Below are positions 9,183 to 61,660 of a stretch of 64,000 bases of DNA, in pieces. Where the stretch lies: assembly GCA_029856045.1 (NCBI GenBank), contig JAHQWG010000046.1:1-64000 (forward strand), read 5' to 3'. The DNA comes from Promethearchaeia archaeon (GTDB taxonomy: Archaea; Asgardarchaeota; Lokiarchaeia; Sigyniarchaeales; SOKP01). The first letter of the stretch is position 1; the number at the start of each line of letters is the position of its first letter. Both the position numbers and the translations under genes were made by a program. The notes beneath the pieces are model-generated. The model worked only from the letters and a program-made list of their open reading frames with translations. It did no database searches and was not told the origin of the DNA.

Positions 9183-10040
9183 TTAATAGTTCCTTGGAAG
9201 TTGCATAATTTCTTTGGCTTCATCCAAATCTGCGATTTCCCGATCCAATTCTTTTGCTAGGCGAACACATTTTTCTACCATTTGTTTATTACTCTCAGCA
9301 AGTATCCCCTTCGAAATATAAATATTATCTTCTAAACCACATCTTACATTACCTCCTAAAAGGATAGCTTGAGTAATTAACCGCCATTGATGTCTGCCAA
9401 TCCCAGTGATACACCATGTAGCCCTTGGAATCTTTTCGATAAGATTCTTCATATACATGAGATTTTCCATTGTTGGAGCCGCTCCTCCTAACACGCCTAG
9501 TACAATATTATAATTTAAAGGATCATGGAAATGTCCTTGGTCCCTTACAAAGAGGATATTATTTATTTGTCCAACGTCATATACTTCAAATTCAGGGGCG
9601 GTTCCCGCTTCTTTAAATGTATCTCCAAAATGTCCCAAAGTTTCAAATTTATTTGGAAATATAATTTCCTTTAAAATTGTTGTTCCTCTTGCAAGAGCAA
9701 AATTCATTGATCCAGAATTTAGGGAACCCATATCAGGTTTGCATATAGGTATATGTCCCAGTCTTTGCTCAAGAGTCATGCCTGGAGCCCCCCCAGTAGA
9801 TAAACATAGAAGTACATCACATTTTTCTTTTACTCTTTTGACAATGTCCTGAAACACTTCAGGAGAAGCAGTTGGTGTGCCATCAGGCATTCTAGCATGT
9901 ATATGGACCATTGTAGCCCCAGCTTCATAACAAGCATAAGCGTCATTTGCTAATTCTTCCGGAGTATGTGGAAGCGCTGGATTTTGTGCTCGCGAAGTGA
10001 GTGAACCAGTCAAAGCGCAAGTTATAACTAATTTTTCCAA
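9183..10040 (-). CDS. Beta-keto acid cleavage enzyme family protein (BKACE, DUF849)
   Basis: The family condenses a beta-keto acid with acetyl-CoA and releases a new CoA ester plus acetoacetate, as known for 3-keto-5-aminohexanoate cleavage enzyme in lysine fermentation. Family marks are the start VITCALTGS, the zinc ligands in MVHIHAR, CLSTGGAPG after the next strand, GSMNFA, and the C-terminal GGNVRCGLEDNIY (Glu and Asp near the zinc). The substrate cannot be read. A frame opens at GTG 10049, but AAGGTGAT is a good ribosome binding site six bases before TTG 10040, so I use that start. The gene follows the thiolase-like/DUF35 operon on the same strand after about 200 bases and may act on its products. 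Confidence 0.85.
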   Translation of the reverse strand: MEKLVITCALTGSLTSRAQNPALPHTPEELANDAYACYEAGATMVHIHARMPDGTPTASPEVFQDIVKRVKEKCDVLLCLSTGGAPGMTLEQRLGHIPICKPDMGSLNSGSMNFALARGTTILKEIIFPNKFETLGHFGDTFKEAGTAPEFEVYDVGQINNILFVRDQGHFHDPLNYNIVLGVLGGAAPTMENLMYMKNLIEKIPRATWCITGIGRHQWRLITQAILLGGNVRCGLEDNIYISKGILAESNKQMVEKCVRLAKELDREIADLDEAKEIMQLPRNY

Positions 10041-10253
10041 TATTATCACCTTATGATTTCAAATTTTTTGAGTTAAATTTCGTTATTTAAATTAAGAATT
10101 TTTTGTTGTTAGATTTATTTTTTCTTTTATTTCATATAAATATTGTCTTGTTTTATCTGGTTAAAATTAAGGTTGCATTAAAATTCTGTTTATTAGGCAC
10201 TCAACTTTTTACTAGATAACAGAACTAATTAAAAATAAAAAATAAAAAAACAA

Positions 10254-11204
10254 TTATATTGGTCTGAAATATTCAATATCCGTAATTCTCTTTCTTGGTT
10301 TATCTTTAAAAACAGCTTCAACTCTCATTCCCGGTTTCAACTTTTTTGGATCGCTTTCTTTTATTATGTGCACTATTTCTGTGTTAGAGCCATCAAGTGT
10401 GATTAATGCATAAGCAAAGGGTGGTTCTAAAGGCATAACGGGAGTAGAATGTGATACAACTGTAAAACCCTTAACTGAGCCTTGATTACTAACTTCAACC
10501 CACTCATCCATTTTTTCAAAGCAATTAAAGCATATCATCTTGGGCGGAACATAGACCTTACCACACTTTGGGCACTTAACCCCCATGATTTTATTATTTT
10601 TACCAATTTCAGTTATAAATTTTTCAACATAAGCTCCAGCGACATGCTTATAAGGAACCTTTATTCTGCCTCTAAATACTTTCTCTTCAATATCTTCAAC
10701 CATTTTTTCAACCTTTTTTGGTTTTGGCTTTTCTCTAATTATTTTATAATATGGAATATCTCCTAAATTACCTTCTCTTACTTCTTTGAAAACTGCTTTA
10801 ACTCGCATCCCAACCCTTAATTTTGTATGATCTACCTCATCAATGAAATGCATAGTATAAGTATCGACACCATCTAATTTAAACAATCCATATCCGTAAG
10901 GAAAAGGTCTTAATCCCCCTGTTTGAGGATCTACAAAAGGATAATTAACCACAGTAAATCCTACTAAAGTTCCAGTGTCATATAATTCAATAAGTCGTGT
11001 CATTTCCACCATACAATCCGCGCAGACTGCTCGAGGTGGGAAATATACTTTTCCACATTGTGGGCATTTACTTCCGTGTAATTTTTTATTCTCCTTTAGT
11101 TCTTTAAAAAATTGAACTGATAATTTCCCCATAGAATATCTGTAAGGAAGGTCAGTTTTCCACTTAATTTGAAATACTTTTTCTTTATCTTTACCTCTAC
11201 TCAT
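10254..11204 (-). CDS. Tandem DUF35 (zinc ribbon plus OB-fold) acyl-CoA-associated protein
   Basis: Two DUF35 units are fused. The first (about residues 20-150) has the zinc ribbon CPQCGKVYFPPRAVCADC followed by an OB fold. The second (about 175-315) has CPKCGKVYVPPKMICFNC and the OB-fold segment GSVKGFTVVSHSTP. DUF35 proteins usually partner with thiolase-like enzymes, for example acetoacetyl-CoA thiolase/HMG-CoA synthase complexes in archaea and the steroid aldolase ChsH2-Ltp2. Two thiolase-like genes lie directly upstream, so one tandem protein may serve a heteromeric pair. The frame extends to a GTG at 11213, but GAGGTG sits six bases before ATG 11204, which I take as the start; that site overlaps the thiolase stop codon. 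Confidence 0.85.
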   Translation of the reverse strand: MSRGKDKEKVFQIKWKTDLPYRYSMGKLSVQFFKELKENKKLHGSKCPQCGKVYFPPRAVCADCMVEMTRLIELYDTGTLVGFTVVNYPFVDPQTGGLRPFPYGYGLFKLDGVDTYTMHFIDEVDHTKLRVGMRVKAVFKEVREGNLGDIPYYKIIREKPKPKKVEKMVEDIEEKVFRGRIKVPYKHVAGAYVEKFITEIGKNNKIMGVKCPKCGKVYVPPKMICFNCFEKMDEWVEVSNQGSVKGFTVVSHSTPVMPLEPPFAYALITLDGSNTEIVHIIKESDPKKLKPGMRVEAVFKDKPRKRITDIEYFRPI

Positions 11205-11214
11205 GATAATCACC

Positions 11215-12381
11215 TCAAAGATTCCTTTCCTTGGAAAGAATCATTATTTCAGTCCATAAACTCCCACCAAATCCCATTCCTAAAGCTTTTTCTACATCAG
11301 GAACTTGTCGTTTTTCTCCTCGACCCATAACTTGGATTGCAGCCTCTGCAACACGGATTAATGCCGTTGCACCAATGGGATTAGTACTCAATACACCTCC
11401 TGATGGATTAACAGGTAATTCTCCACTCATTTGAGTAATACCCTCATCCAGTAATTTTCCACCTTCTCCAAATTTGCAAAAACCTAATGCTTCAGTCCAA
11501 GCAAGCTCACTCCAAGAAGTGGGTTCATATATTTCTGCAACATCCAAATCTTTTACCGGATCTGTGATTCCAACCTTTTTATAAGCTTTTTTAGATGCAA
11601 TTGTTGCAGTTGGAAGATCGAACATTGCTTCATCAGTACCATAAGTGTAATAATGGGCAGTTTCTACAGCCTGAATCCATGCAGGATTATCGGTAATGTT
11701 TCTAGTTTCTTCTTCGTTGGCATAAATAACTGCACATGCACCCTCGCTCTGCGGACAACAATCATGAAGCCTTAATGGATACGAAATAGTTTGGGATTTC
11801 ATAACATCTTCGACTGTAAGATTAGGCATTTTTAAATGAGCAAATGGATTATTCGCAGCGTTTCGACGATTTTTTACGGTAACCCTTGCAGCTTGTTCAG
11901 GAGTTATTCCGTATTTATGTTGATACATACTGGCCATAAGAGCCAGAGGACCTAAGGCTCCTGCTAAAGAGGGTCTTTCCCATACTGGATCGAAAGCTGT
12001 GATTATTCCTGTTGTTGCTCCGCCTTCTTGTAACTTCTCCCAGCCTATAATTAATACTTTATTATATATTCCTGATGCCACATTATGGTATCCGCATATT
12101 GCTAATGATGATCCTGTAGTTCCTCCTGTTGCAACCTTAACAACTGGTTTTAAATAGCCTGGTGCCGCATCTATTCCACACCACATCTCCGAAAAGTTAA
12201 TTCCTTCAAAATGATCCATATTTCCGATTATTACTGCATCTATATCAGCAGGCATAAGTTGAGCATCATCAAGAGCCATTCTTACGGCCTCATATATCAT
12301 TTCAGGGATATTAACATCCCTTCTTTTGCTTCTATGCTTTGTTTGTCCTATACCTACTATTGCAACATCATGTTTTCCCAT
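11215..12381 (-). CDS. Thiolase-like protein lacking the nucleophilic cysteine (SCP-x/archaeal type), A
   Basis: The 388-residue protein has the thiolase fold of the archaeal/SCP-x group: AIVGIGQTKH at the start, GWEKLQEGG, and GGVLSTNPIGATALIRVAE near the C-terminus. Two features differ from working thiolases. The segment that should carry the acyl-accepting cysteine reads GGTTGSS (86-92) with no cysteine. The usual HPxGATG motif reads NPIGATA, without the histidine. The HDxF motif is replaced by IYEPTS. This suggests a non-thiolytic reaction, such as the retro-aldol cleavage done by Ltp2-type proteins, or a structural subunit. It lies three bases after its paralogue and directly before the tandem DUF35 gene, so a complex of all three is likely. 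Confidence 0.82.
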   Translation of the reverse strand: MGKHDVAIVGIGQTKHRSKRRDVNIPEMIYEAVRMALDDAQLMPADIDAVIIGNMDHFEGINFSEMWCGIDAAPGYLKPVVKVATGGTTGSSLAICGYHNVASGIYNKVLIIGWEKLQEGGATTGIITAFDPVWERPSLAGALGPLALMASMYQHKYGITPEQAARVTVKNRRNAANNPFAHLKMPNLTVEDVMKSQTISYPLRLHDCCPQSEGACAVIYANEEETRNITDNPAWIQAVETAHYYTYGTDEAMFDLPTATIASKKAYKKVGITDPVKDLDVAEIYEPTSWSELAWTEALGFCKFGEGGKLLDEGITQMSGELPVNPSGGVLSTNPIGATALIRVAEAAIQVMGRGEKRQVPDVEKALGMGFGGSLWTEIMILSKERNL

Positions 12382-12384
12382 ATT

Positions 12385-13536
12385 CTATACACCTCCATCA
12401 TTTCCAAATATTAGAACACAGTTTCCTTGGGAACAAATTCCATTCATTCCATTTGCTAATCCAATTTTAGCATTCGGGATCTGTCTTTTATCTGCTTTAC
12501 CCATTAATTGCAGAGCAATTTCAGCTACCCGAATTAAACCATTTGCCATGGTTGGATTACTTGATAGAACACCTCCCGAAGGATTAACAGGTATATTTCC
12601 AGTCATTTCAGTTTCACCACTTTCAATAAATTTTCCACCTTCTCCTTTCCCACAGAATCCTAATGCTTCGTAACTCATCAATTCATGATATGAAAACATA
12701 TCATAGACTTCTGCTACATCAATTTCTCTGATTGGATCAGTAATTCCAGCCATTTTATAAGCTTCTTTAGCAGCTAATTCTAGTCCAATTAGATCCGTCA
12801 TTGTTCTATGCCCTAAATAATAAGCATCAGTACAACTACCGTATCCCATAAGCCAAACAGGTGAGTCTGTAAATTTTTTAGCAATCTCTTCTTTTGTTAA
12901 AAGCATTGCAACTGCACCATCAGAGAGTGGTGGTAAATCAAGTTCTTTTAAAGGATATGCTATCATTGGAGAGAAAAGGACATCTTCAATAGTAATTGCT
13001 TCTTGTAAATGTGCATATGGGTTATTGAGTGCATTTTTTCGATTCTTTATAACAACCTTAGCTGCTTGCTCCTCTGTAATTCCATACTTATTTACATACA
13101 TATTAGCCATTAAACCGGCAGCAGATATTTGATCTAATCCTAAAGCTCTTTGATAAAATGGATCAAAAATGGAATTATTTATAAGATATTGATCTCCTTC
13201 AGAACATTTGCAGTGGGATACAACCATAACTGTATCATAATACTCTGAAAGAATTCTCATAGCTCCATATATATATGCAAAAGCTCCATCTCCCGAAACT
13301 CTTGATTCTGATTTTCCAATAGCTCCCACTGCATCTATAATCGCCATATTAGCGATGGTCCTTCCATCGTTGAAATCGTTAGAGCTTGTTATAATGCTTC
13401 CAATATCATCTTTTGTGATCCCTAGATCATCCATAAGCTTCTTAACAACCTCAAAAACAAGTTCTGAATATGTCTGATCGATTTTATCTGCTTCATATTT
13501 TGTTTGGGCAATTCCTACAATTGCTACTTTATCCAT
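12385..13536 (-). CDS. Thiolase-like protein lacking the nucleophilic cysteine (SCP-x/archaeal type), B
   Basis: The 383-residue paralogue of the downstream gene is first in the operon. It has the family start KVAIVGIAQTKYEA, then CSEGDQY, and GGVLSSNPTMANGLIRVAEIAL. The cysteine segment reads SGDGAFA (81-87), and the C-terminal histidine motif reads NPTMANG. Both normal catalytic residues are therefore missing. HDxF is replaced by VYDMFS. The tyrosine at this place is shared with copy A and may matter. The two proteins probably form a heterodimer with the tandem DUF35 protein. The 345 bases upstream separate it from a divergent acyl-CoA gene cluster and should contain promoters for both directions. 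Confidence 0.82.
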   Translation of the reverse strand: MDKVAIVGIAQTKYEADKIDQTYSELVFEVVKKLMDDLGITKDDIGSIITSSNDFNDGRTIANMAIIDAVGAIGKSESRVSGDGAFAYIYGAMRILSEYYDTVMVVSHCKCSEGDQYLINNSIFDPFYQRALGLDQISAAGLMANMYVNKYGITEEQAAKVVIKNRKNALNNPYAHLQEAITIEDVLFSPMIAYPLKELDLPPLSDGAVAMLLTKEEIAKKFTDSPVWLMGYGSCTDAYYLGHRTMTDLIGLELAAKEAYKMAGITDPIREIDVAEVYDMFSYHELMSYEALGFCGKGEGGKFIESGETEMTGNIPVNPSGGVLSSNPTMANGLIRVAEIALQLMGKADKRQIPNAKIGLANGMNGICSQGNCVLIFGNDGGV

Positions 13537-13881: not shown

Positions 13882-14703
13882 ATGAATGAATTTAATTTTC
13901 AAGATATCCTTTATGAGAAGGAGGATAACGGTATTTGCACGGTTACTTTTAACAGACCTGAAAGAAGAAATGCAGTGACTTACTTAACCTTTTTCGAAAT
14001 TCATAAGGTATTAGAAGATATGGAAAAGGATAAAAATGCTAAGGTCTTAATAGTAACTGGAAACGAAGAGGGTAATGCCTTCACATCAGGTGGTTATTTT
14101 GACCCAAAAATTTTTAAAAATCTAAAGGATGAAATTAAGCAAGAAATCGATTTAATGGATATTGCTCAAAAAAAATTATGTATGAAACTATGGAAATTTG
14201 ATAAGCCAGTCATTGCAGCAATTAATGGATTAGCCATAGGAGGAGGAATAACAATGCCCTTAGCAGGTGCTGATCTAATTTTTATGGCTGAAGATGCATG
14301 GTTAGGATTTTATTTTGGAAAGAGAGCCATTATACCCGAATTTGGAGCCAATTTTATTTTACCATTTTATTTAGGGTTTCAAAAAGCAAAAGAAATTGTA
14401 TATTTTGGCGAAAAAATATATGCTCAAGAAGCTTATGAACTTGGACTTGTAAATAAAGTCTTACCTAAGGAGAAACTAATTCCCTACACTCGAGAACAAG
14501 CTTTACGACTGATTCCTCCCAAGGGTCCATGTTTATCAATAAAATTAATGAAAAAAACCATGCATTCTTATTTCCTTGAGATCATAGATAAGACTTTAGA
14601 TTTAGAAAATAGAGGACTTAGAAAAGCTTTTACTTCATATGATTTTAGAGAATCGATGAACGCACTTAAAGAAAAAAGAGAACCAGCATTTAAAGGGAAA
14701 TAA
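13882..14703 (+). CDS. Enoyl-CoA hydratase/isomerase family protein (crotonase fold)
   Basis: The protein has the crotonase signatures: the N-terminal strand NGICTVTFNRPERRNAV, then DKPVIAAINGLAIGGGITMPLAGADL for the oxyanion hole, and AYELGLVNKVLP in the C-terminal trimerisation part. Of the two glutamates used by hydratases, only the second position keeps one (IIPEFGANF). The first site reads FGKRAI, so simple hydration is uncertain and an isomerase or other crotonase reaction is possible. It is the first gene of a plus-strand cluster reaching the acyl-CoA synthetase at 21236. This supports work on a CoA thioester in the cytoplasm. The ATG start has no strong ribosome binding site. Confidence 0.87.
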   Translation: MNEFNFQDILYEKEDNGICTVTFNRPERRNAVTYLTFFEIHKVLEDMEKDKNAKVLIVTGNEEGNAFTSGGYFDPKIFKNLKDEIKQEIDLMDIAQKKLCMKLWKFDKPVIAAINGLAIGGGITMPLAGADLIFMAEDAWLGFYFGKRAIIPEFGANFILPFYLGFQKAKEIVYFGEKIYAQEAYELGLVNKVLPKEKLIPYTREQALRLIPPKGPCLSIKLMKKTMHSYFLEIIDKTLDLENRGLRKAFTSYDFRESMNALKEKREPAFKGK

Positions 14704-14862: not shown

Positions 14863-15273
14863 GTGAAAAAAATGAAAATATTGACTGAAGAATGGGTTGA
14901 AGCTTTTGGTAAAGCAATTAATGATAATCCAAATTATAAACCGTCGGCGCTTACCTGGGAAGGTGATATGCTTCTTATAATTGAACCTAGTGGGAAATTG
15001 GATCATGAAGTCAGGGTATTTATTGGACTCTACCATGGTGAATGTACAGGGACTAGACTATTAAAAGAAGGAGAAGAGGTAGACACTCCATATATTCTAT
15101 CTGGTCCTTATGATAATTTTGTGAGAGTTATGAATAAAGAATTTGATCCTATTCAAGGAGTCATGTCTGGTAAGCTAAAACTAACTGGTGATATGGCAAA
15201 ATTGATGAGACATGTTCAAGCAGCTAAAGAAATTGTGAACAGTCTCCAAATGTTCGAAACAGAATTTTTATAA
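14863..15273 (+). CDS. SCP2 sterol-carrier-domain protein
   Basis: The 136-residue single-domain protein fits the SCP2 fold. A strand-rich first half contains LTWEGDMLLIIEPSGKL. The typical C-terminal helix pattern is IQGVMSGKLKLTGDMAKLMRHVQAAKEIVNSL, matching the family's GxxxGKLKxxGDxxxAxKL-type signature. SCP2 domains hold a lipid or fatty acyl-CoA in a hydrophobic tunnel. Here it probably carries the substrate for neighbouring crotonase, dehydrogenase and flavoprotein genes, which is inference. Two starts are possible, GTG 14863 or ATG 14872; neither has a clear ribosome binding site. Free-standing SCP2 proteins are known in other archaea and bacteria. Confidence 0.82.
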   Translation: MKKMKILTEEWVEAFGKAINDNPNYKPSALTWEGDMLLIIEPSGKLDHEVRVFIGLYHGECTGTRLLKEGEEVDTPYILSGPYDNFVRVMNKEFDPIQGVMSGKLKLTGDMAKLMRHVQAAKEIVNSLQMFETEFL

Positions 15274-15344: not shown

Positions 15345-16544
15345 ATGTGGTACTTTTATAGTCCTAATATTATATATGGTGAGGATGCACTAAATTTTTT
15401 AGAAAATATTCCGGGAGATAAATGTTTTATTGTCACTGATAAAGTAATGGAGGAGTTGGGTTATTTAAAAATTTTAACAGATAAACTGGAAAAATACGGA
15501 AAACAGTATAATGTATATAATGGAGTACTCCCTGATCCTCGAGAAACTTACGTAGCAGAAGCAAGAGAAATGTGCAATTCTTATACTCCCGATTTAATTC
15601 TTGCTTTAGGAGGAGGTTCGGTTATGGATGTTGCAAAAATGGTTTGGTGCTTCTATGAATTTCCAGAGCTTTCACTTGATGATATCCATCCATTTAGACC
15701 CGACCTTCATAATATAGGCAAAAAAGCAAAATTAATAGCCATACCAACAACTTCAGGAACTGGAGCAGAAACAACATATGCCGCACTTATATCAAAATTT
15801 GAAAATGATCTCTGGAAAAAGTTTTTATATGCTCATAAAGGAATAGTTCCTACATATGCTATATTAGATCCAGTTTTTCCCGTAGGAATGCCTTCTAATT
15901 TAACTGCTGATACAGGTTTTGATGCATTAGCCCATGCGATTGAAGGAATGGTCTCTGTTTGGAGAAATGAGTTCAGTGATGCATTAGGAGTTAAAGCTAT
16001 TGAATTGGTTTTTAAATATCTGCCAATTGCCATTAGAGAAGGTAAGAATATGGAAGCTAGAGATTACATGCATCAAGCTGCAACTATGGCTGGATTAGCC
16101 TTTGGTAATGGAAATCTTCATATAGGACATGGAATGGGTCATAGTTTGGGAGCAATTTTTCATATTCCTCATGGAAGGGCAGTTGGTGTTGTGCTTAGTT
16201 ATGTTACACAATTCTGTTTAAATAATCCTGATGAAAAAGATAAATCTTTAGAAATTTATGCAAAATTAGCGAAACAGTTAGGATGGTCAAACTGGGATGA
16301 AGATAATAAAAAGGCAGCCTTTACTGTAATCGAGAAAATTAAAGAACTCCAAAAAGAAGTCGGAATTCCGAATAATATTCAAGATTTAGGAATTTCTCGT
16401 GAAGATTTTGATAAGAATTTAGATATGCTAATAACTTTATGTTATGAAGATGCAACTATTGGAATGGTCCCAAGAAGCGTAAATCCAGAGATATTTAAAA
16501 ATTTATTTACATATGCTTATAACGGGAAAGATATCGATTTTTAA
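15345..16544 (+). CDS. Iron-containing alcohol dehydrogenase
   Basis: The 399-residue protein is a group III alcohol dehydrogenase. The NAD(P)-binding part shows ALGGGSVMDVAKM, and PTTSGTGAETTYAA follows. Metal ligands are in the typical places: the Asp in DTGFDALAHAIEG, the first His in the same segment, and two more in HGMGHSLGAIFHIPHGRAVG. It interconverts an alcohol and an aldehyde or ketone in the cytoplasm. The gene is about 70 bases after the SCP2 gene and 92 before the flavoprotein gene, on the same strand, so it likely belongs to the same pathway. The substrate is unknown; a lipid-derived alcohol fits the context. Confidence 0.9.
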   Translation: MWYFYSPNIIYGEDALNFLENIPGDKCFIVTDKVMEELGYLKILTDKLEKYGKQYNVYNGVLPDPRETYVAEAREMCNSYTPDLILALGGGSVMDVAKMVWCFYEFPELSLDDIHPFRPDLHNIGKKAKLIAIPTTSGTGAETTYAALISKFENDLWKKFLYAHKGIVPTYAILDPVFPVGMPSNLTADTGFDALAHAIEGMVSVWRNEFSDALGVKAIELVFKYLPIAIREGKNMEARDYMHQAATMAGLAFGNGNLHIGHGMGHSLGAIFHIPHGRAVGVVLSYVTQFCLNNPDEKDKSLEIYAKLAKQLGWSNWDEDNKKAAFTVIEKIKELQKEVGIPNNIQDLGISREDFDKNLDMLITLCYEDATIGMVPRSVNPEIFKNLFTYAYNGKDIDF

Positions 16545-16636: not shown

Positions 16637-18190
16637 ATGCAAGAAAAAATTTTTGATGAGAACCGAGATATTTCTACTTATGAAGTTATTGTGATTGGTG
16701 CTGGGCTTGGTGGACTCGGTGCTGCTTGTCAACTTGCTCTTTTAGATAAAAAAGTTTTGTTGCTCGAAAAGCACAATGTACCTGGAGGATTCGCAACTTC
16801 TTTTGTTAGGGGTCGATTTGAGTTTGAAGGAGCCTTACATGAATTAAGTGATATTGGGAATGAAACCAATAAAGGAGGTCTTTATAGATATTTAGAGAAA
16901 ATTGGGATACTCCCCGAGAAACTTAAGTTCAATTATGTTCCAGAGTTTTATCGCAGTGTGTTTTACGATGGATATGATGTTACCATTCCATTCGGTGTTG
17001 AGGAATATACTAATAAATTGATAGAACTATTTCCTGCCGAAAAGAAGGGAATAGAAGAATTTATGGAAATGGTTCAAGCAGTGTTAGCGGGGATTCAGTA
17101 TGTTGCATCTAAAGGTGGTAAATTTTCACAAGGTGAAATCCTTAAAGAACATCCATGGCTTGCACGCGTCTCAGGTATCACGCTTCAAGAACTTTTCGAT
17201 AAATTCTTCAAAGACCAAAAATTAAAGTGTTTAATAGCTCAACTATGGGGATATCTTGGTTTACCAGCGAATAGAATAAATGCATATGCATATATTGCAA
17301 TGTTAATATTTTATTTGAAATGGGGAGCAGCCTTTCCCATAGGACGATCTCATGCATTAACAAGTGCTATGATAAAATCCTTTGAAGATTTAGGAGGAAA
17401 AGCAAGGTTCAATGCCTTGGTGAATCGTATCCTTGTGGAAAATGGACGAGTTGCTGGTGTTGAACTCCTTAATGGAGAAATTTATCACAGTAAGGCAGTT
17501 ATATCAAATGTCAATCCGATATGCACAGCAATGAAAATGATACCACAAGAAATTGTGCCAGAAAGTTATAAAAAGAGAATTTACGCTCCAGAAATCGGAG
17601 TCTCTGGATTTTCAGTTTATATTGGATTAAATGCATCGCATAAAGAATTGGGATTTAATACTCATGAAACTTTTATTAATGAAACCTACGATACGGTACA
17701 AGCTTTCGAGACCTTCAGAAAATTAGAATCACCACAATATTTGGTTGCAGCATGCTATAATCACATTGATGAAACTATATCTCCTCCTGGAACAACACAA
17801 CTTGTTCTCACCACTCTCCAAATGGGCAAAATTTGGCAGAGTGTTTCTCCCGATCAATACCACAATATTAAAGATGATCTCGCGGATAAAATGATTGCGA
17901 TGGTGGAAAAATATCTCTGCTCAGATATACGCGATTACATTGAAGTAGCAGAAGCAGCAACCCCTCTTACATATTATCGATACTCAAAAAATATAGAAGG
18001 TGCTATTTATGGATATACTCAAGACATCATGAATGGTCCAATGCTTCGATTAAAAAGCAGAGGAGCCATTCCCGGACTATATCAAGCAGGTGCTTGGACA
18101 AACTTTGGTGGAGGATATTCAACTACAATTATGGGTGGCAGAATTGCCGCTGGAATGTATCTAAATGATATTAGGGAGGGAAAGTGGTAA
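16637..18190 (+). CDS. Phytoene-desaturase/carotenoid-isomerase-like FAD oxidoreductase
   Basis: The 517-residue protein begins with the FAD-binding fold VIVIGAGLGGLGAACQLA, then the conserved NVPGGFATSFVRGRFEFEGALHEL typical of the phytoene desaturase and retinol saturase group. The C-terminus has the second FAD segment GLYQAGAWTNFGGGYSTTIMGGRIAA. Members saturate, desaturate or isomerise isoprenoid chains. In this cluster it may reduce or oxidise a prenyl or lipid chain, with electrons from the adjacent ferredoxin-reductase-like protein. That coupling is inference from the four-base gap. Codon choice here seems less AT-biased than in the neighbours (many CGA/CGC), hinting at transfer, but I could not measure it. 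Confidence 0.83.
   Translation: MQEKIFDENRDISTYEVIVIGAGLGGLGAACQLALLDKKVLLLEKHNVPGGFATSFVRGRFEFEGALHELSDIGNETNKGGLYRYLEKIGILPEKLKFNYVPEFYRSVFYDGYDVTIPFGVEEYTNKLIELFPAEKKGIEEFMEMVQAVLAGIQYVASKGGKFSQGEILKEHPWLARVSGITLQELFDKFFKDQKLKCLIAQLWGYLGLPANRINAYAYIAMLIFYLKWGAAFPIGRSHALTSAMIKSFEDLGGKARFNALVNRILVENGRVAGVELLNGEIYHSKAVISNVNPICTAMKMIPQEIVPESYKKRIYAPEIGVSGFSVYIGLNASHKELGFNTHETFINETYDTVQAFETFRKLESPQYLVAACYNHIDETISPPGTTQLVLTTLQMGKIWQSVSPDQYHNIKDDLADKMIAMVEKYLCSDIRDYIEVAEAATPLTYYRYSKNIEGAIYGYTQDIMNGPMLRLKSRGAIPGLYQAGAWTNFGGGYSTTIMGGRIAAGMYLNDIREGKW
18174..18180 (+). promoter_or_regulatory. Purine-rich ribosome binding site for the ferredoxin-reductase gene
   Basis: GGGAGGG lies within the last codons of the flavoprotein gene, 14 bases before ATG 18195. 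The spacing is longer than ideal. It supports the ATG start over the upstream in-frame ATG 18165, which lies inside the previous gene. Confidence 0.4.
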
Positions 18191-18194
18191 AATC

Positions 18195-19382
18195 ATGATG
18201 GAAGATATTAAAAAATATCAAAAAGCCGAAAAATTAAAAAAATGGCGAGATCAAGTCGAACCAATACCTTGGTATTACGATGGGCTAGAAAATCTGTGCA
18301 ACCGACTCCATCCCCAGCAACAACTGCTAAAAATCACCGACATAGAACAACTCTCAAGAGATACTAAATTGTTTCGATTAGTTTCCGCAAATCCTAAGCA
18401 ATTAATAGCACCATTTCGTGCCGGTCAATATATTGGTCTTACAATAGAAATAAATGGTGTCCGAACAAGTCGCCCATATTCGCTTGTATCATCCCCGAAT
18501 CAATTAGCATACTATGAATTGGGTATTAAAAAAAAAGAGGAAGGATTTGTAAGCCCATACTTATTTGAAAATATTAAAATTGGAGATATTCTTGAAGCCA
18601 CCGAACCCTTGGGAAACCTTTACTATAATCGACTCTTCCATGGGATAAACTTAGTATTTATTGCAGGTGGTTCCGGTTGTACACCTTTTATCTCAATGTT
18701 GCGAGATATTTCAGAGCGAGAGATTCCTCTTAATGTCTGGATGTTATTCGGGTGCTTAACTGAGGAAGATATTTTATTTCGAAATGTATTAGAAGATATC
18801 CAAAAACGACGATCAAATATCAAAGTTGTAAATATTCTATCGGAAGCATGTTCTGAATGGACCGGAGAATCCGGATTTATCTCTAAAGACAAGATTTTAA
18901 AAGTAATTGGCTCCATCGAGAAAAAATTCTTTTATATTGTTGGGAATCGACCAATGTATCATTTTGTTTTAGATGAATTAAAAGAATTGGGTGTCCCACA
19001 ACATCGTATCGCACATGAGGCGTTCGGAGTGCCAGATGACATAACTCAGATTATGGGATGGCCAGCAGAGATTGATACATCTAAAAAAGTTCAAATTACT
19101 ATTGATTTTAGGCGATATGGAAAGATCGAACAAAAAGTATTTGAAGCATCATGTACAGAGCCCATATTAAACAGTCTCGAACGCGCAGAACTAAAAGAAC
19201 TCGAAATTAAAAGTGGGTGTCGTTCTGGGGAATGTGCTCTCTGCAGGACAAAACTTGTATCCGGTAAAATTTTTATACCACCTGAAGTAACAACCAGAGA
19301 GGCCGATAAAGACTATAATTTTATCCACCCATGTATATCTTATCCACTCACCGACATTCACTTAAATTTAAATGAAACCTAA
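18195..19382 (+). CDS. Ferredoxin-NADP-reductase-like protein with C-terminal 2Fe-2S domain
   Basis: The domains are in the phthalate-dioxygenase-reductase/Class-I-reductase order. An FAD-binding barrel carries SRPYSLVSS. An NAD(P)-binding part carries FIAGGSGCTPFISML. A plant-type 2Fe-2S domain carries the cysteines of GCRSGECALCRTK plus the distal HPC. About 50 extra N-terminal residues have no clear fold. It moves electrons between NAD(P)H and an acceptor. Overlapping spacing with the flavoprotein upstream suggests that protein is its partner. A frame opens at ATG 18165 inside the upstream gene. I chose ATG 18195, four bases after the upstream stop. Such reductases usually serve oxygenases; in an otherwise anaerobic gene set the acceptor is unclear. 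Confidence 0.87.
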   Translation: MMEDIKKYQKAEKLKKWRDQVEPIPWYYDGLENLCNRLHPQQQLLKITDIEQLSRDTKLFRLVSANPKQLIAPFRAGQYIGLTIEINGVRTSRPYSLVSSPNQLAYYELGIKKKEEGFVSPYLFENIKIGDILEATEPLGNLYYNRLFHGINLVFIAGGSGCTPFISMLRDISEREIPLNVWMLFGCLTEEDILFRNVLEDIQKRRSNIKVVNILSEACSEWTGESGFISKDKILKVIGSIEKKFFYIVGNRPMYHFVLDELKELGVPQHRIAHEAFGVPDDITQIMGWPAEIDTSKKVQITIDFRRYGKIEQKVFEASCTEPILNSLERAELKELEIKSGCRSGECALCRTKLVSGKIFIPPEVTTREADKDYNFIHPCISYPLTDIHLNLNET

Positions 19383-19538: not shown

Positions 19539-21236
19539 GTGAGTGTAGAAAAATTTTGGTTAAAATCATATGATAAACATGTCCCTGAAACCCTAACCTA
19601 TTCAAATGATGATGTCGGAACCGCTTTGAGCAAAGCGATGAATAGATTTCCAGATAGAATTGCTTGTCATTTCATGGATTATGCGATGACTTATAAAGAA
19701 TTAATGGAATTATCTCAAATATTTGCCTCGTTTTTGCAAAAAAATGGTTTAAAAAAGGGTGATGTTGTTTCTGTAAATCTTGCTAATATGCCCCAATACT
19801 TAATCGCTGTTTTTGGGACTTATCTAGCAGGTGGTACTGTTGCTGGATGCTCTCCCCTCTTAAGTGCTGATGAAATGGCTTTTCAATTAAACGATAGTAG
19901 TGCAAAATTTCTAGTCACTATGGATATTATTTACGCAAAAAGAATGCCCCAAATTCTGGATAATTTACCAAAACTCGAAGTTATCATTCCTACAAATATT
20001 TCGGAATATATGGGGTTCTCTAGTTTTAAAGTATTTATGGGCAAGTTAATAAAAAAAATCCCAAAGGGGAAAATGAACCCATGGCCAGGAAAAAAAATTG
20101 TTCCTTTTCAAGAAGTAATGACCACTCCAATCGATATAAAAAAAGTTGAAATTGACCCTAAAAAAGATTTAGCGTTAATTCAATATACAGGTGGGACCAC
20201 TGGAACTCCCAAAGGAACTGAAATTACACATTTTAATTGGATAGCGAATATGCATCAATTTGATGTATGGCTCAAGAGAGAAATAGGAACTGATGTTGTT
20301 CTTTGTGCTTTTCCTTATTTCCATATCGCCGGATTCTTTGTTGGGTTATTCTTAACGTATATTTCAGCCTCATCTATTATTATAGCAAATCCACGTGACA
20401 CAGATCACATTATACATGAAATGATTGATAAAAAAATTACTGTTTTTGGAAATGTGCCTACTTTATTTTTAATGGTTCAAAGTAATCCAAAATCTAAGGA
20501 AATCCCAGATGAAATATTAGATAACATTACTTTATATGTCTCTGGAGCTGCACCCTTTCCAGCTGAAGCAGTTAGAGATTTTGAAAAAGATTTTCATTCG
20601 GCAAATAAATTCGTAGAGGTTTATGGTATGACCGAAACTGCAGTTTTGGCTACGGTAAATCCTGCATTAGGAAAGAAGAAGATTGGAAGTGTTGGACTCC
20701 CATTACCCGATACAGAGATAAAACTTGTGGATGTAGAAACTGGAGAACAGGTTGAACTCGGTAACCCTGGTGAAGTATTGATAAAAGGACCACAAGTAGC
20801 ACGAGGATATCATAATAAACCTGATGCTACAGCAGTAACTTTCACTGAGGGTTGGATTCACACGGGAGATGTTGGTATTTTTGATGAAGAAGGATATTTA
20901 AGAATAGTTGACCGCACAAAAGACATGCTGAGTGTAAGTGGATTTAAGGTTTATAGTGTGCACGTTGAAGATGTAATGACTAAACATCCAGACATACAAT
21001 TAATGGCAATTATTGGACTCCCTGATAAAGACAGACCTGGAAGCGAAATTGTGAAAGCTGTAATTCAATTAAAAGAAGGAATTGAAGCAAGCGATAAAGT
21101 GAAAGAAAATATTAAGAAATTTGCACAGGAGAATCTGGCAAAGTATGAAGTTCCAAAACAATGGGATTTCCGTGATGAACTCCCATTAACATCAATTGGT
21201 AAAGTGCTGAAAAGAGCACTTAGAGAAGAAAAGTAA
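19539..21236 (+). CDS. AMP-forming acyl-CoA synthetase
   Basis: The 565-residue protein is a long- or medium-chain acyl-CoA ligase of the adenylate-forming superfamily. Motifs in order are the phosphate loop YTGGTTGTPKGTE, the A5 motif VYGMTETA, the A7/A8 hinge HTGDVGIFDEEGYLRIVDRTKDM, and the C-terminal lysine in SIGKVLKRAL. It activates a carboxylic acid to its CoA ester using ATP. The start is GTG 19539, giving a terminus like that of the paralogues at 31799 and 34777 (VEKFWLKSYD against EKQFWRKSWD). It closes the crotonase-SCP2-dehydrogenase-flavoprotein cluster and could load that pathway's substrate. Confidence 0.92.
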   Translation: MSVEKFWLKSYDKHVPETLTYSNDDVGTALSKAMNRFPDRIACHFMDYAMTYKELMELSQIFASFLQKNGLKKGDVVSVNLANMPQYLIAVFGTYLAGGTVAGCSPLLSADEMAFQLNDSSAKFLVTMDIIYAKRMPQILDNLPKLEVIIPTNISEYMGFSSFKVFMGKLIKKIPKGKMNPWPGKKIVPFQEVMTTPIDIKKVEIDPKKDLALIQYTGGTTGTPKGTEITHFNWIANMHQFDVWLKREIGTDVVLCAFPYFHIAGFFVGLFLTYISASSIIIANPRDTDHIIHEMIDKKITVFGNVPTLFLMVQSNPKSKEIPDEILDNITLYVSGAAPFPAEAVRDFEKDFHSANKFVEVYGMTETAVLATVNPALGKKKIGSVGLPLPDTEIKLVDVETGEQVELGNPGEVLIKGPQVARGYHNKPDATAVTFTEGWIHTGDVGIFDEEGYLRIVDRTKDMLSVSGFKVYSVHVEDVMTKHPDIQLMAIIGLPDKDRPGSEIVKAVIQLKEGIEASDKVKENIKKFAQENLAKYEVPKQWDFRDELPLTSIGKVLKRALREEK

Positions 21237-34396: not shown

Positions 34397-34776
34397 CTCA
34401 CTATATATATAATATATTATTTCACAAATATAAATAATTTAAGACAGAAAGATTACTGATGTAATATTTATTGAGCCTAGTCTTCGTCTTCGCGTTCGGA
34501 TAAATATAAATACCCTCCAACCCACGGGATATGGAGCATATCGCAAGATTTTTTTCTCTTTTACAATTTTTCAGTCTTTCCTCAATTGTATAATCTTTAT
34601 TAATTAATATCTTTTATGTGTTGTTTGAACACAAGATAGTGAGATTTGGATATTTTAAATGAAATATATCGTGAAAAATTAGTCCTAATATTGCAAATAT
34701 AAAGATTTATAAAATAATTAGATGCAATAATATTATACAAAAATTTAATAAAAAATATTATACAAAAGTGTTAAAG
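34397..34776. other. Intergenic region with a short GC-richer patch
   Basis: The first 66 bases repeat the upstream flank of LRR copy 1. Bases about 34475-34545 are clearly richer in G and C (CGTCTTCGCGTTCGG, then CCCACGGGATATGGAGC) than the surroundings. On the minus strand they give a short open frame without a family match. They could be part of a small RNA or a gene fragment. The rest is AT-rich and should hold the promoter of the synthetase gene. Confidence 0.35.
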
Positions 34777-55537: not shown

Positions 55538-56869
55538 TTAAAATTCAATTTTTGGAAAAATATGTTCTTCTTTACGTAATGGTTTGTACTTGAAGAATCG
55601 ACGTGATTCGCTATCTTCCAGCACTAGATTAGACCCACCGCCATGGACCATACAGTAAGGGTCAAGTATACCTATAGGGACGCTATACTGCCTAATGAAT
55701 CCACGGCCACCCATAGTTCGAAAACAGTGCACAGCCGCCTCAAAAGCTAATTCTGACGCAGCAACTTTTAAACCCATTGTTTGCTGAGCCATTAATTTTC
55801 CGCTTCCCAATTCTGGATATTTATCTATTTCTCTCGCGTAATTAATTAATGCTGCAATTAATAAATTTAGTTCCCGAATATTTTTAGAAATTGGGAATCT
55901 AATAACTTGATATTGGTGTAACTTTTTCTCAAATTGTTTTCTCTGAAGAGCATATGTGTGTGAATATAATAGTTTCTTCATTGCGTCACCAAGCGCTTCT
56001 GCACTAATGACAAGGCGTTCTTCTGTGAGCTGGTGGAACATTATATCCATACCTGAACCTTTTAGCATATTCTCTATAGGAATTTCTACTTTATCAAATA
56101 TTAAACGACTTACAAATGCATCTGTCATTCCGTAGGTTCTAACTCTACTCGCTTTAAAATTCTCTAACTGTTGATTTTCAGTGTCAACAATAATTGCTCC
56201 GATTGAGCCTTTATTAACTCGACCGTATAAAATTAAATATTTACAAATCATACCATTTGTTATAAAGACTTTTTTACCTTTTGCAATAACTTTATCTCCT
56301 TGGGTTTGGAGATTTAATTCCATTCTTGCGATATCACTACCTGCGTTAAATTCAGTCATAGCGGACGCACCAACTTCTCCATCCCCTGCAACAGGAACTA
56401 AGAATGTTTCCCATTGATATTCATTTGCTTTATAAGAAACGGGATTGCAATAAAGTGTACCTCCCGCTAAACGTCCCATTTCAATACTCCAATTCCCAGC
56501 TATATATCTTTCGCTTTTTTCTGACCATCTTCCACCGCATAGAGCAAAAGCGATGAGGATATTCCTCATTATTCTCCCAACTTCGTATTTTTCAGGATAA
56601 AGAACCGTGCTATAATATCCTTTCTCTGCCAATTTTTTCATTATTTTAATTACAATATCTTTTTTTTTATCTTGAGTTGGTTCCTCCACAAGATAATTTA
56701 ATTCTTCCAAAGTCCTCAAATCTTTATCAAGTTCTTTTTCTAAGAAATCATAAAAAGTAGCCAAAAATTCCTTTTCTTGCACGTTTAATAATGGGTTATT
56801 TAATAAGTCTAATTCTGGAACATATTTTTGTATTTGAATTGGTTTAAAGTCTCTTAATCTTGTATCCAT
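55538..56869 (-). CDS. Acyl-CoA dehydrogenase family protein
   Basis: The 443-residue protein shows the ACAD N-terminal helical domain, the middle beta domain with GDGEVGASAMTEFNAGSDIARME and KVIAKGKKVFITNGMICKYLILYGR, and the C-terminal helical domain ending FRTMGGRGFIRQYSVPIGILD and HGGGSNLVLEDSESRRF. It oxidises an acyl-CoA to an enoyl-CoA with FAD, in the cytoplasm. The last region departs from the usual GGxGY and GTxEI segments, so the catalytic base position is not clear and the reaction may be special. A glycyl radical enzyme gene lies upstream on the same strand, 136 bases away. Confidence 0.83.
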   Translation of the reverse strand: MDTRLRDFKPIQIQKYVPELDLLNNPLLNVQEKEFLATFYDFLEKELDKDLRTLEELNYLVEEPTQDKKKDIVIKIMKKLAEKGYYSTVLYPEKYEVGRIMRNILIAFALCGGRWSEKSERYIAGNWSIEMGRLAGGTLYCNPVSYKANEYQWETFLVPVAGDGEVGASAMTEFNAGSDIARMELNLQTQGDKVIAKGKKVFITNGMICKYLILYGRVNKGSIGAIIVDTENQQLENFKASRVRTYGMTDAFVSRLIFDKVEIPIENMLKGSGMDIMFHQLTEERLVISAEALGDAMKKLLYSHTYALQRKQFEKKLHQYQVIRFPISKNIRELNLLIAALINYAREIDKYPELGSGKLMAQQTMGLKVAASELAFEAAVHCFRTMGGRGFIRQYSVPIGILDPYCMVHGGGSNLVLEDSESRRFFKYKPLRKEEHIFPKIEF

Positions 56870-60238: not shown

Positions 60239-61660
60239 TTAATCCTCCTTTAGTAGATGATTTGGATGCATTAAAATTGTAGCAGTAACATGGGACCCGA
60301 CACCAGCGTGACTGATAGCTAATCCACGTTTAGCACCCTTAACTTGTAAATCAGTCCAGTCCTTAGGTTTTTCTCGACCAAATTTCTTCCATTTCTTTTC
60401 ATCACCGTGTATTTCAGCCCATCGATTCCATATATGATATCCGATTTCAGCAATTTGCATTAAGCCCGTTGCACCAACAGCATGCATACATCCAATTAAA
60501 CCTCCGGAAAGGTTGCTTGGTAAACGCCCAGGTTTGCCAGTTTTAGGATTTGTATGATAACCATCTCCAGATTCAATATAATCACGACCTTCACCATATG
60601 GACGAAGTCCCACATCTTCATATGATTGAATATCACTAATTGTAAATGCATCATGTAGTTCAATTACGTCCAGATCTTCGCATGGATCAACAACTCCTGT
60701 CATATTATATGCATAGTAAGATGCAATACGTGCAGCCAAAAAGCTAGAAAAACCGGGATATCGATCTCCTCCTGGAAATCTCTTTCCTAAATCATCATAT
60801 AGTCCAGGTTCCTCATTGGGTAATAGTGGTATTTTCATATCTCGCCGATCTGCTACACGTAGAGTATGACTTCCTGCACCTATCCAAATTCGTAAAGGAT
60901 TATCTGTAAGTTCATAAGCTGTTTTTTCATCACAAACAACTCCACAAGCAGCTCCTACGCTCATTAAACAACAATCTAAAACTCGAAGCGGATATGCTAC
61001 AACTGGCGAGTTAATTACATCTTCAACAGTAATTTTCATACCACCATGTGCATAGGGATTCATCCTTCCATACCCGCGATTTTTTACAGCAATTTCAGCC
61101 ATAGTTTTTCGAAAAGAATCTTCAGCTTTCCCAAATATTTGCCAATATCTCTGTGCCATAACAGCGTAATAACCTGTATATATATGACCGAGTGGTGTCT
61201 CCCAATCTTTATCTGCTGCACATGCAATCAGGTGATTTCCTTCATCAGTAGGAACTTCATCCATTCTTTCCCATCCCATAGCTAGAGCACAATCGCTGTA
61301 ACCAGAAGCTACTGCTTTAATAGCTTCCCAAATAGTTGAACCCCCTGTAGCTCCCCCTGTTTTTACTCCAATAGTACCAAGAGGATCTAGACCAAGCCGA
61401 TCATGAATAACTGCTTCTCCTAAAAGTTGATCTCCGAAATGATCCGCAAAATGCCCGTAATATGCAGTATGTATATATTGTTTTAATTCAGCAGGAGTCA
61501 TTTTTATAAAATCTGCCGCTGCAGTAAATGCTTCAATACATAGTTCTTCAGTTCGTAAAGTGGGAAAGGCACGACCAAATCTTGACATACCTGATGTTGC
61601 TAAATATACTGGTCGCGCCATTTTTGGAATCTTAAGTTGTTTATCACTAAATTTAATCAT
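60239..61660 (-). CDS. Thiolase-like protein lacking the nucleophilic cysteine, C
   Basis: The 473-residue protein is longer than the other two because of extra loops (for example PLLPNEEPGLYDDLGKRFPGG and VRGDEKKW-type C-terminal part). The segment normally carrying the cysteine reads TGGATGGST (101-109). In contrast to the copies at 11-13.5 kb it keeps the HD motif (VIELHDAFTISD) and the C-terminal HAVGATG. It may thus keep an acid-base function but no acyl-enzyme. The DUF35 partner is immediately downstream, and an acyl-CoA dehydrogenase is divergent. An activity such as an aldolase or HMG-CoA-type condensation is possible. Confidence 0.82.
   Translation of the reverse strand: MIKFSDKQLKIPKMARPVYLATSGMSRFGRAFPTLRTEELCIEAFTAAADFIKMTPAELKQYIHTAYYGHFADHFGDQLLGEAVIHDRLGLDPLGTIGVKTGGATGGSTIWEAIKAVASGYSDCALAMGWERMDEVPTDEGNHLIACAADKDWETPLGHIYTGYYAVMAQRYWQIFGKAEDSFRKTMAEIAVKNRGYGRMNPYAHGGMKITVEDVINSPVVAYPLRVLDCCLMSVGAACGVVCDEKTAYELTDNPLRIWIGAGSHTLRVADRRDMKIPLLPNEEPGLYDDLGKRFPGGDRYPGFSSFLAARIASYYAYNMTGVVDPCEDLDVIELHDAFTISDIQSYEDVGLRPYGEGRDYIESGDGYHTNPKTGKPGRLPSNLSGGLIGCMHAVGATGLMQIAEIGYHIWNRWAEIHGDEKKWKKFGREKPKDWTDLQVKGAKRGLAISHAGVGSHVTATILMHPNHLLKED

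What the first reader, a model, noticed from the sequence alone, without database searches (positions are those of the whole stretch)
9183..13536. Two cysteine-less thiolase-like proteins, a tandem DUF35 protein and a beta-keto acid cleavage enzyme
Both thiolase-like proteins lack the acyl-accepting cysteine (GGTTGSS, SGDGAFA) and the C-terminal histidine, and each has a tyrosine where HDxF usually starts. The steroid aldolase Ltp2 is a cysteine-less thiolase-like enzyme that works with DUF35 protein ChsH2. A heterodimer with a two-unit DUF35 protein would be a new variant, perhaps an acyl-CoA aldolase whose product goes to the BKACE enzyme.
Basis: partly seen in the sequence, partly recalled or inferred. 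Interest (0 to 1): 0.75.

Follow-up and report, generated by a model that had tools for sequence, protein, structure and literature searches.

The report
Archaeal two-part thiolase-like aldolase module
A Loki-type Asgard archaeon carries a tightly packed gene set for a two-subunit enzyme that looks like a thiolase but has lost its key cysteine and probably cuts carbon chains the way a bacterial sterol-degrading aldolase does; the kind is already known from bacteria, but its spread through archaea and anaerobes and its repeated pairing with a beta-keto acid cleaving enzyme are not described in the papers I could search.

Summary
TL1 (12385-13536) and TL2 (11215-12381) lack the nucleophilic cysteine (Gly in its column) and the GHP histidine (Asn), and each has Tyr in place of the His of HDxF. 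They are followed, 3 nt and 1 nt apart, by a tandem DUF35 protein with two intact zinc ribbons, then a BKACE gene. In trees the pair groups with Ltp2-type aldolases, away from Cys-containing thiolases. But a Cys-less heteromer with two DUF35 units is not new: it is the layout of the actinobacterial Ltp3-Ltp4 'heteromeric aldol-lyase', and 70 of 80 relatives of TL2 from bacteria and archaea have the pair. The two subunits are unequal: Tyr285 of TL2 is kept in 35 of 38 homologues found without using that motif, Tyr278 of TL1 in only 8 of 37. So I propose TL2 is catalytic and TL1 a degenerate partner. Ltp2's second tyrosine and its YDHF histidine are missing. BKACE recurs near the pair in 29 of 80 relatives, so a shared pathway is likely; the substrate is unknown. 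Best reading: an archaeal, BKACE-linked relative of the Ltp3-Ltp4 aldol-lyase. No activity has been shown for these proteins.

The parts
12385..13536 (-). TL1: Cys-less thiolase-like subunit, Ltp4-like partner (YDMF at residues 278-281; three residues shorter than TL2 after the nucleophile site)
   Evidence: three-residue gap in 92/92 clade members; Tyr278 in 27/92 (8/37 in the motif-independent set)
11215..12381 (-). TL2: Cys-less thiolase-like subunit, Ltp3-like, proposed catalytic subunit (Y285-E-P-T, N334, G87)
   Evidence: AlphaFold2 pLDDT 91.4, thiolase fold
11527..11529 (-). codon of TL2 Tyr285, proposed catalytic base (aligns with Tyr294 of TcLtp2 YDHF)
   Evidence: Ltp2 numbering from PMC12329534
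12121..12123 (-). codon of TL2 Gly87, the column of the thiolase nucleophilic Cys
   Evidence: Gly in 106/106 TL2-clade sequences
11380..11382 (-). codon of TL2 Asn334, in place of the thiolase GHP histidine
   Evidence: Asn in 106/106; 38/38
12703..12705 (-). codon of TL1 Tyr278, not conserved in TL1 orthologues
10254..11213 (-). tandem DUF35 (two zinc ribbon + OB-fold units), proposed to cap the thiolase-like subunits
   Evidence: ribbons CPQC..CADC (residues 50-67) and CPKC..CFNC (214-231); fused only in window, L048, L049
9183..10049 (-). BKACE family enzyme (beta-keto acid cleavage)
   Evidence: PF05853 344 bits; kept in L049; another BKACE subfamily lies beside the pair in most Loki relatives
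13882..14703 (+). enoyl-CoA hydratase/isomerase, divergent neighbour
   Evidence: PF00378; in 11 of 20 Loki loci compared
14863..15273 (+). SCP2-like sterol/acyl-CoA carrier domain protein
   Evidence: PF02036; in 9 loci
15345..16544 (+). iron-containing alcohol dehydrogenase, candidate for handling an aldehyde product
   Evidence: PF00465; in 10 loci
16637..18190 (+). CrtI-type FAD oxidoreductase
   Evidence: TIGR02734 below cut-off; in 8 loci
18165..19382 (+). FAD/NAD/2Fe-2S reductase
   Evidence: in 11 loci
55538..56869 (-). acyl-CoA dehydrogenase; its family (F6) lies near the TL pair in relatives
   Evidence: Pfam scan of the L050 family member; 9 loci; same family as the window protein by similarity
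60239..61660 (-). third Cys-less thiolase-like protein (GGATGG, LHDAF), with its own DUF35 at 59639-60232; its family lies beside the pair in 8 relatives

Best explanation
The operon makes a heteromeric C-C lyase of the Ltp3-Ltp4 kind. TL1 and TL2 pair as a thiolase-type dimer capped by two DUF35 units on one chain. TL2 is the catalytic half: Tyr285 takes the proton from the beta-hydroxyl of a 3-hydroxyacyl-CoA, the C2-C3 bond breaks (retro-aldol), and acetyl-CoA (or propionyl-CoA) plus an aldehyde, ketone or keto acid leave. Backbone NH at Gly87 and the side chain of Asn334 are candidates for the oxyanion pocket. TL1 keeps the fold but has a degenerate active site and mainly completes the dimer and substrate channel. 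BKACE and the nearby ligase, dehydrogenase, hydratase and Fe-alcohol dehydrogenase belong to the same acyl-CoA breakdown pathway. Shown by sequence: Cys loss, the gene module, clade membership, subunit asymmetry, recurrent BKACE. Inferred: dimer make-up, reaction type, direction, residue roles, substrate.
For: Cys and GHP His absent, Tyr at the HDxF His. Both trees place TL1+TL2 with Ltp2-like and other Cys-less proteins and leave the Cys-containing thiolases outside: TL1+TL2 90 and +Ltp2 94 ultrafast bootstrap, 0.948 and 0.993. TL2 groups with Tsukamurella Ltp3 at 97. Tsukamurella genes score 593 and 734 bits against NF005924 and NF006180, over cut-off, and sit after a tandem DUF35 gene on a plasmid that also carries KstR, Mce-type genes and a steroid thiolase, the layout of Rv3521-ltp4-ltp3. 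Ltp3-Ltp4 is described as a heteromeric aldol-lyase (PMC6678751; PMC6593523). TcLtp2 Tyr294 and CtSal Tyr302 are the catalytic base in the same column (PMC12329534). Asymmetry: Tyr285 35/38 and Asn334 38/38 in TL2 versus Tyr278 8/37 in TL1 (motif-independent set). AlphaFold2 models of both have the thiolase fold. BKACE in 29/80 loci; both TL pairs in this genome have a BKACE within about 3 kb although the genome has only five near-full-length BKACEs. AOR and Fe-ADH near the operon in relatives.
Against: TL2 lacks Ltp2's general acid (Tyr344), the YDHF His and CtSal's Cys304 (Pro287 in their place), so no general acid is identified. Scores are below the Ltp3 and Ltp4 family cut-offs (380 of 514; 199 of 419 bits). 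Two haloarchaeal and one Rhodococcus homologue have Phe at 285. TL1 grouping with Ltp4 proper is weakly supported (26; TL1 clade as a whole 82). The proposed activity of Ltp3-Ltp4 rests on genetics in the papers read here. No complex was modelled.
Confidence: 0.6

Rival explanations
1. It is a Claisen-type acyltransferase or thiolase complex like PhlABC or BbsAB (DUF35-bound thiolase superfamily) that works through another nucleophile.
For: Same overall make-up: thiolase-fold proteins plus DUF35; PhlABC even has an inactive thiolase-superfamily partner (PMC2954200). Foldseek finds PhlABC, BbsAB and the archaeal acetoacetyl-CoA thiolase complex among the matches.
Against: Gly replaces the nucleophilic Cys in 106/106 TL2 homologues and the GHP His is Asn; no displaced Cys here. 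Both trees leave the Cys-containing thiolases outside the clade that holds TL1, TL2 and Ltp2.
Confidence: 0.12
2. Both thiolase-like proteins are catalytically dead and serve as a CoA-binding scaffold or channel between the neighbouring hydratase and BKACE.
For: Loss of canonical residues; DUF35 proteins act as staples between enzymes in Ltp2-ChsH2 and Sal-Shy (PMC12329534; PMC10398937).
Against: Near-invariant Tyr285, Asn334, Gly87, Ser327-Gly-Gly in TL2 and strong purifying selection are more than a scaffold needs; TL1, the better scaffold candidate, has lost the Tyr.
Confidence: 0.15
3. The complex runs in the synthetic direction: aldol addition of acetyl-CoA (or another acyl-CoA) to an aldehyde, ketone or keto acid, for biosynthesis.
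For: Aldol reactions are reversible; acyl-CoA ligases and reductases nearby could serve either direction.
Against: Neighbour families (acyl-CoA ligase, acyl-CoA dehydrogenase, enoyl-CoA hydratase, aldehyde:ferredoxin oxidoreductase, BKACE) look catabolic; the characterised relatives Ltp2 and Sal cleave (PMC12329534).
Confidence: 0.13

Closest known systems
Ltp3-Ltp4 heteromeric aldol-lyase with its tandem DUF35 gene (Rv3521-Rv3522-Rv3523 layout; actinobacterial sterol C24-branch removal)
   Same: Two adjacent Cys-less thiolase-like genes plus two DUF35 units; YxP and SNPIGA motifs in the Ltp3-like subunit; three-residue gap after the nucleophile site in the Ltp4-like subunit
   Different: Archaeal and anaerobic setting; BKACE nearby; no steroid-uptake or P450 genes noticed among the listed ORFs; TL1 is 383 aa versus 359 aa in Tsukamurella, and has YDMF where Ltp4 has HAPF; both below the family cut-offs
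Ltp2-ChsH2(DUF35) aldolase (6ok1) and Sal-Shy(DUF35) (9myr)
   Same: Cys-less thiolase fold, base Tyr at the HDxF position, DUF35 partner
   Different: Single type of thiolase-like subunit; Ltp2 also needs Tyr344 and uses the YDHF His, Sal uses Cys304; TL2 has Gly337 and Pro287 there
PhlABC-type multicomponent acyltransferase
   Same: One active plus one inactive thiolase-superfamily protein plus a DUF35-family protein (PMC2954200)
   Different: PhlC is described as the catalytically active, acyl-condensing subunit; here no subunit has the nucleophilic Cys
ST0096 thiolase-like protein (4yzo), Sulfolobus tokodaii
   Same: Best PDB sequence match for both TLs; no Cys at the nucleophile site in the alignment (TSGSGGS), HDMA where thiolases have HDxF
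   Different: Not included in the trees made here; function unknown to me
3-keto-5-aminohexanoate cleavage enzyme and other BKACE enzymes
   Same: PF05853 over full length, 302 bits to NF052387
   Different: Below every BKACE equivalog cut-off (382 for NF052387), so substrate not assigned

Membership tests
Ltp3-Ltp4 heteromeric aldol-lyase | Two adjacent Cys-less thiolase-like genes with two DUF35 units | tested here: met
   layout as in Tsukamurella
Ltp3-Ltp4 heteromeric aldol-lyase | TL2 scores over the cut-off of the Ltp3 family model NF006180 | tested here: not met
   380.5 bits, cut-off 514; Tsukamurella Ltp3 734
Ltp3-Ltp4 heteromeric aldol-lyase | TL1 scores over the cut-off of the Ltp4 family model NF005924 | tested here: not met
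   198.7 bits, cut-off 419; Tsukamurella Ltp4 593
Ltp3-Ltp4 heteromeric aldol-lyase | TL2 groups with Ltp3 in a tree | tested here: met
   bootstrap 97; 0.98 for the TL2/Ltp3 clade
Ltp3-Ltp4 heteromeric aldol-lyase | TL1 groups with Ltp4 in a tree | tested here: inconclusive
   TL1/Ltp4 clade 82, but node joining window TL1 and Tsukamurella Ltp4 26; shared three-residue gap 92/92
Ltp3-Ltp4 heteromeric aldol-lyase | Aldol cleavage of C24-branched sterol side chains | not testable with these tools
   needs protein and substrate
Ltp2 aldolase | Base Tyr of YDHF (Tyr294) | tested here: met
   Y285 in TL2, Y278 in TL1
Ltp2 aldolase | General acid Tyr344 (GEAYIHG) and YDHF His | tested here: not met
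   Gly337 and Pro287 in TL2; Met in both places in TL1
Ltp2 aldolase | Over cut-off of NF005892 | tested here: not met
   156 (TL1) and 167 (TL2) bits, cut-off 469
SCP2-type / acetoacetyl-CoA thiolase | Nucleophilic Cys, HDxF His, GHP His | tested here: not met
   Gly, Tyr, Asn
Thiolase superfamily | Thiolase fold | tested here: met
   AF2 pLDDT 91.4 and 89.1; TM-score 0.92-0.93 to 6esq/6et9
BKACE | PF05853 over full length | tested here: met
   344 bits, cut-off 24.8
BKACE, 3-keto-5-aminohexanoate cleavage enzyme | Over cut-off of NF052387 | tested here: not met
   302 bits, cut-off 382

The most novel reading that the evidence does not exclude
The complex and BKACE form a two-step module: TL1-TL2-DUF35 splits a 3-hydroxyacyl-CoA that carries a carboxymethyl branch (of the 3-hydroxy-3-alkylglutaryl-CoA type), releasing acetyl-CoA and a free beta-keto acid, and BKACE then converts that beta-keto acid with acetyl-CoA into a shortened acyl-CoA plus acetoacetate. 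This would be an anaerobic route through branched or isoprenoid chains shared by Asgard archaea and anaerobic bacteria. It fits the sterol proposal that Ltp3-Ltp4 leaves a free carboxylate (PMC6678751), the BKACE recurrence and the glutaconate-CoA-transferase-like genes near 12 of 74 non-Loki modules. Against it: no biotin carboxyltransferase to make the branch was found in this genome, and AOR/Fe-ADH neighbours suggest an aldehyde product instead.
Probability: 0.18. Interest if true: 0.7.

Novelty: new variant of a known kind. Interest (0 to 1): 0.5.

Why it matters
Cys-less thiolase-like proteins are widely annotated as acetyl-CoA acetyltransferase, lipid-transfer protein or thiolase. This set shows that a large heteromeric branch, in Asgard archaea, anaerobic bacteria and haloarchaea, is probably a C-C lyase with one worn-out subunit, and it narrows the tests to one Tyr in one subunit. 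The repeated pairing with BKACE gives two enzymes of unknown substrate a common pathway, and would bear on what Lokiarchaeia eat.

Tried and rejected
(1) IpdAB/IpdC-like steroid ring cleavage for the CoA-transferase pair and nitronate-monooxygenase-like gene downstream (L013): the CoA-transferase is closer to glutaconate CoA-transferase (169 vs 82 bits) and keeps an aligned Glu in the beta subunit, so a steroid reading was dropped. (2) Geranyl-CoA-type carboxylation upstream of the aldolase: no PF01039 carboxyltransferase in the genome. (3) Conservation counts from the genome-contig scan for Tyr285/Pro287 were set aside because the search pattern itself contained YxP; a motif-independent set was fetched instead. 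(5) The primary Ltp2 paper is not held; its residue roles are taken from PMC12329534. (6) No paper in the library was found that describes the heteromeric module in archaea or anaerobes; that is absence in this library only.
Full report
What is there. The window lies on contig C46 of a 3.34 Mb genome of the Loki group: close orthologues come from records titled Candidatus Lokiarchaeota/Lokiarchaeia. The four genes of the finding are all on the minus strand and tightly packed: TL1 12385-13536, TL2 11215-12381, tandem DUF35 10254-11213, BKACE 9183-10049. The DUF35 protein has two complete zinc ribbons, CPQC-x10-CADC and CPKC-x10-CFNC.

Active sites. Aligned with Cys-containing thiolases from the same genome and elsewhere, both proteins have Gly in the column of the nucleophilic cysteine, Asn in the column of the GHP histidine, and Tyr in the column of the HDxF histidine. 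No cysteine lies within several residues of the nucleophile site in either protein. Two Ltp2 proteins over the NF005892 cut-off (from Nocardia farcinica and Rhodococcus rhodochrous plasmids) show YDHF and GGQLGEAYIHG; by position the latter holds TcLtp2 Tyr344. TL2 has Tyr285 for the base Tyr294, but Pro287 for the YDHF His and Gly337 for Tyr344. The roles of Tyr294, His296 and Tyr344, and of CtSal Tyr302 and Cys304, are from PMC12329534. So only one of the known catalytic residues is shared, and the general acid of TL2 is not identified.

The two subunits are unequal. In the TL2 clade of 106 sequences Gly87 and Asn334 are invariant and Tyr285 is present in 103; in the TL1 clade of 92, Tyr278 is present in 27 and the rest have S, C, F, H and others, and all 92 are three residues shorter after the nucleophile site. 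Because the scan that fetched many of these used a YxP pattern, I repeated the count on sequences found by similarity to TL1 or by plasmid tblastn: Tyr285 35/38, Asn334 38/38, against Tyr278 8/37 (counts read from the table). Even among close Loki orthologues TL1 has Y, S or F there. I infer that TL2 is catalytic and TL1 a degenerate partner.

Relationships. FastTree on 225 sequences gives TL1+TL2 0.948 and TL1+TL2+Ltp2-like 0.993. IQ-TREE on 84 representatives gives a TL2 clade 91, TL1 clade 82, both together 90, and 94 for the node that adds Ltp2-like proteins and the single Cys-less proteins at window 60239-61660 and L013; the Cys-containing thiolases are all outside. TL2 joins Tsukamurella Ltp3 at 97. 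The rooting is on one Cys thiolase and is arbitrary, and reference structures were not in the tree. AlphaFold2 models (33 and 31 sequences; pLDDT 91.4 and 89.1) have the thiolase fold, with TM-scores of 0.92-0.93 to the archaeal acetoacetyl-CoA thiolase of the DUF35-containing HMG-CoA synthase complex and 0.83-0.85 to Ltp2.

The known counterpart. On a Tsukamurella plasmid that carries KstR, Mce-type genes and a steroid thiolase, a 309-aa tandem DUF35 gene is followed by two thiolase-like genes that score over the cut-offs of NF005924 and NF006180. The same order Rv3520c (F420 oxidoreductase), Rv3521, ltp4 (Rv3522), ltp3 (Rv3523) is listed for M. tuberculosis in PMC6429209; that Rv3521 is a tandem DUF35 protein is from my own knowledge. 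PMC6678751 describes Ltp3-Ltp4 as a heteromeric aldol-lyase that removes C24 branches of sterols; the underlying work cited is genetics in Rhodococcus. The window's TL2 scores best to NF006180 and both TLs stay below the cut-offs (380/514 and 199/419 bits). I therefore say it works like Ltp3-Ltp4 but do not file it as Ltp3-Ltp4.

Spread and neighbours. In the Asgard phylum 190 of 228 genomes have some TL1 relative at 1e-40, and about 30 Loki-family and related genomes have close orthologues. In genome contigs, 70 of 80 loci have TL1 next to TL2 and 77 have DUF35 nearby; titles include Deltaproteobacteria, Anaerolineae, Dehalococcoidia, Blastocatellia, Acidimicrobiia, Jordarchaeia, Bathyarchaeota and Methanolliviera. 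Those 80 are the best-scoring loci of a capped list, not a random sample. Haloarchaeal and Cupriavidus plasmids have it too. The tandem DUF35 is fused in the window and two sister species; other Lokis have two genes. A BKACE is in 29 of 80 loci (20 of 42 that are at least 15 kb). In this genome there are five near-full-length BKACEs, and both TL pairs (this one, and 76004-78336 on the same contig) have one within about 3 kb. In Lokis the module also sits with enoyl-CoA hydratases, acyl-CoA dehydrogenase, ligase, SCP2, Fe-alcohol dehydrogenase, a CrtI-type oxidase, a 2Fe-2S reductase and, in five loci, an aldehyde:ferredoxin oxidoreductase. These look like an acyl-CoA breakdown pathway that makes a carbonyl product. 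The window BKACE itself is of a different subfamily from the one beside the pair in most relatives, so the BKACE link is at family level.

Mechanism and confidence. Best reading (0.6): TL2 Tyr285 starts a retro-aldol cleavage of a 3-hydroxyacyl-CoA; TL1 and the DUF35 units complete the complex. Without a cysteine a ping-pong Claisen reaction is unlikely. What leaves, and whether BKACE takes it, is open: a keto acid would suit BKACE, an aldehyde would suit AOR and Fe-ADH. Without a biotin carboxyltransferase the classical carboxylation route to a beta-carboxymethyl branch is not available in this genome.

Verdict. The aldolase idea is the best reading, but the claimed new variant (heterodimer plus two-unit DUF35) is already known in outline. 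What is added here is the subunit asymmetry, the archaeal and anaerobic spread, and the BKACE association.

Noticed in passing
TL2 orthologues in L023/L052/L089, L024/L053, L031/L060, L034/L063, L036/L065, L179 (not in the window): Six Loki-family genomes carry a 30-nt insert with in-frame stops at one identical site of the TL2 gene (after ...GGTAAY, before ATGGAYCA). Removing exactly 30 nt restores the frame IGN/MDHFEG seen in all uninterrupted homologues compared. The insert forms an 11-bp hairpin with a 5-nt loop, 98.5% of stem cells paired and three pairs changed on both sides; it was found once per genome. It resembles an archaeal pre-mRNA intron as in cbf5 (PMC2738675), but no bulge-helix-bulge fits all six; split gene with reinitiation is the alternative. 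RNA-seq would decide.
   Followed up: partly
G000:C46:75544-78920 (L013 12544-15920): A second TL1-TL2 pair in the same genome, flanked by two single DUF35 genes, with its own BKACE (L013 9860-10774) and a glutaconate-CoA-transferase-like pair (L013 7947-9737) upstream.
   Followed up: partly
window 60239-61660 and L013 1629-2861: Two further Cys-less thiolase-like proteins with a single DUF35 neighbour; they keep HDAF and a His in the GHP-like motif, unlike TL1 and TL2.
   Followed up: partly
L116, L118, L097, L100, L151 and seven more loci: Glutaconate-CoA-transferase-like subunits recur near the TL1-TL2 module in 12 of 74 non-Loki loci, five of them also with BKACE.
   Followed up: partly
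window 57006-59402 (-): Glycyl radical enzyme of the PFL2-3 / glycerol dehydratase family (TIGR01774, 752.6 bits over cut-off), next to the acyl-CoA dehydrogenase and the third thiolase-like protein.
   Followed up: no
window 19539-21236, 31799-33517, 34768-36501, 44591-46381: Four AMP-forming acyl-CoA ligase-like genes within 27 kb, which suggests that this region is an acyl-CoA metabolism island (identified by reading).
   Followed up: no
window 36579-37463 and 37603-38592: Two neighbouring divergent amidohydrolase-2 family genes (PF04909); a similar gene also occurs near modules in other organisms (L114 4289-5146, identified by reading).
   Followed up: no
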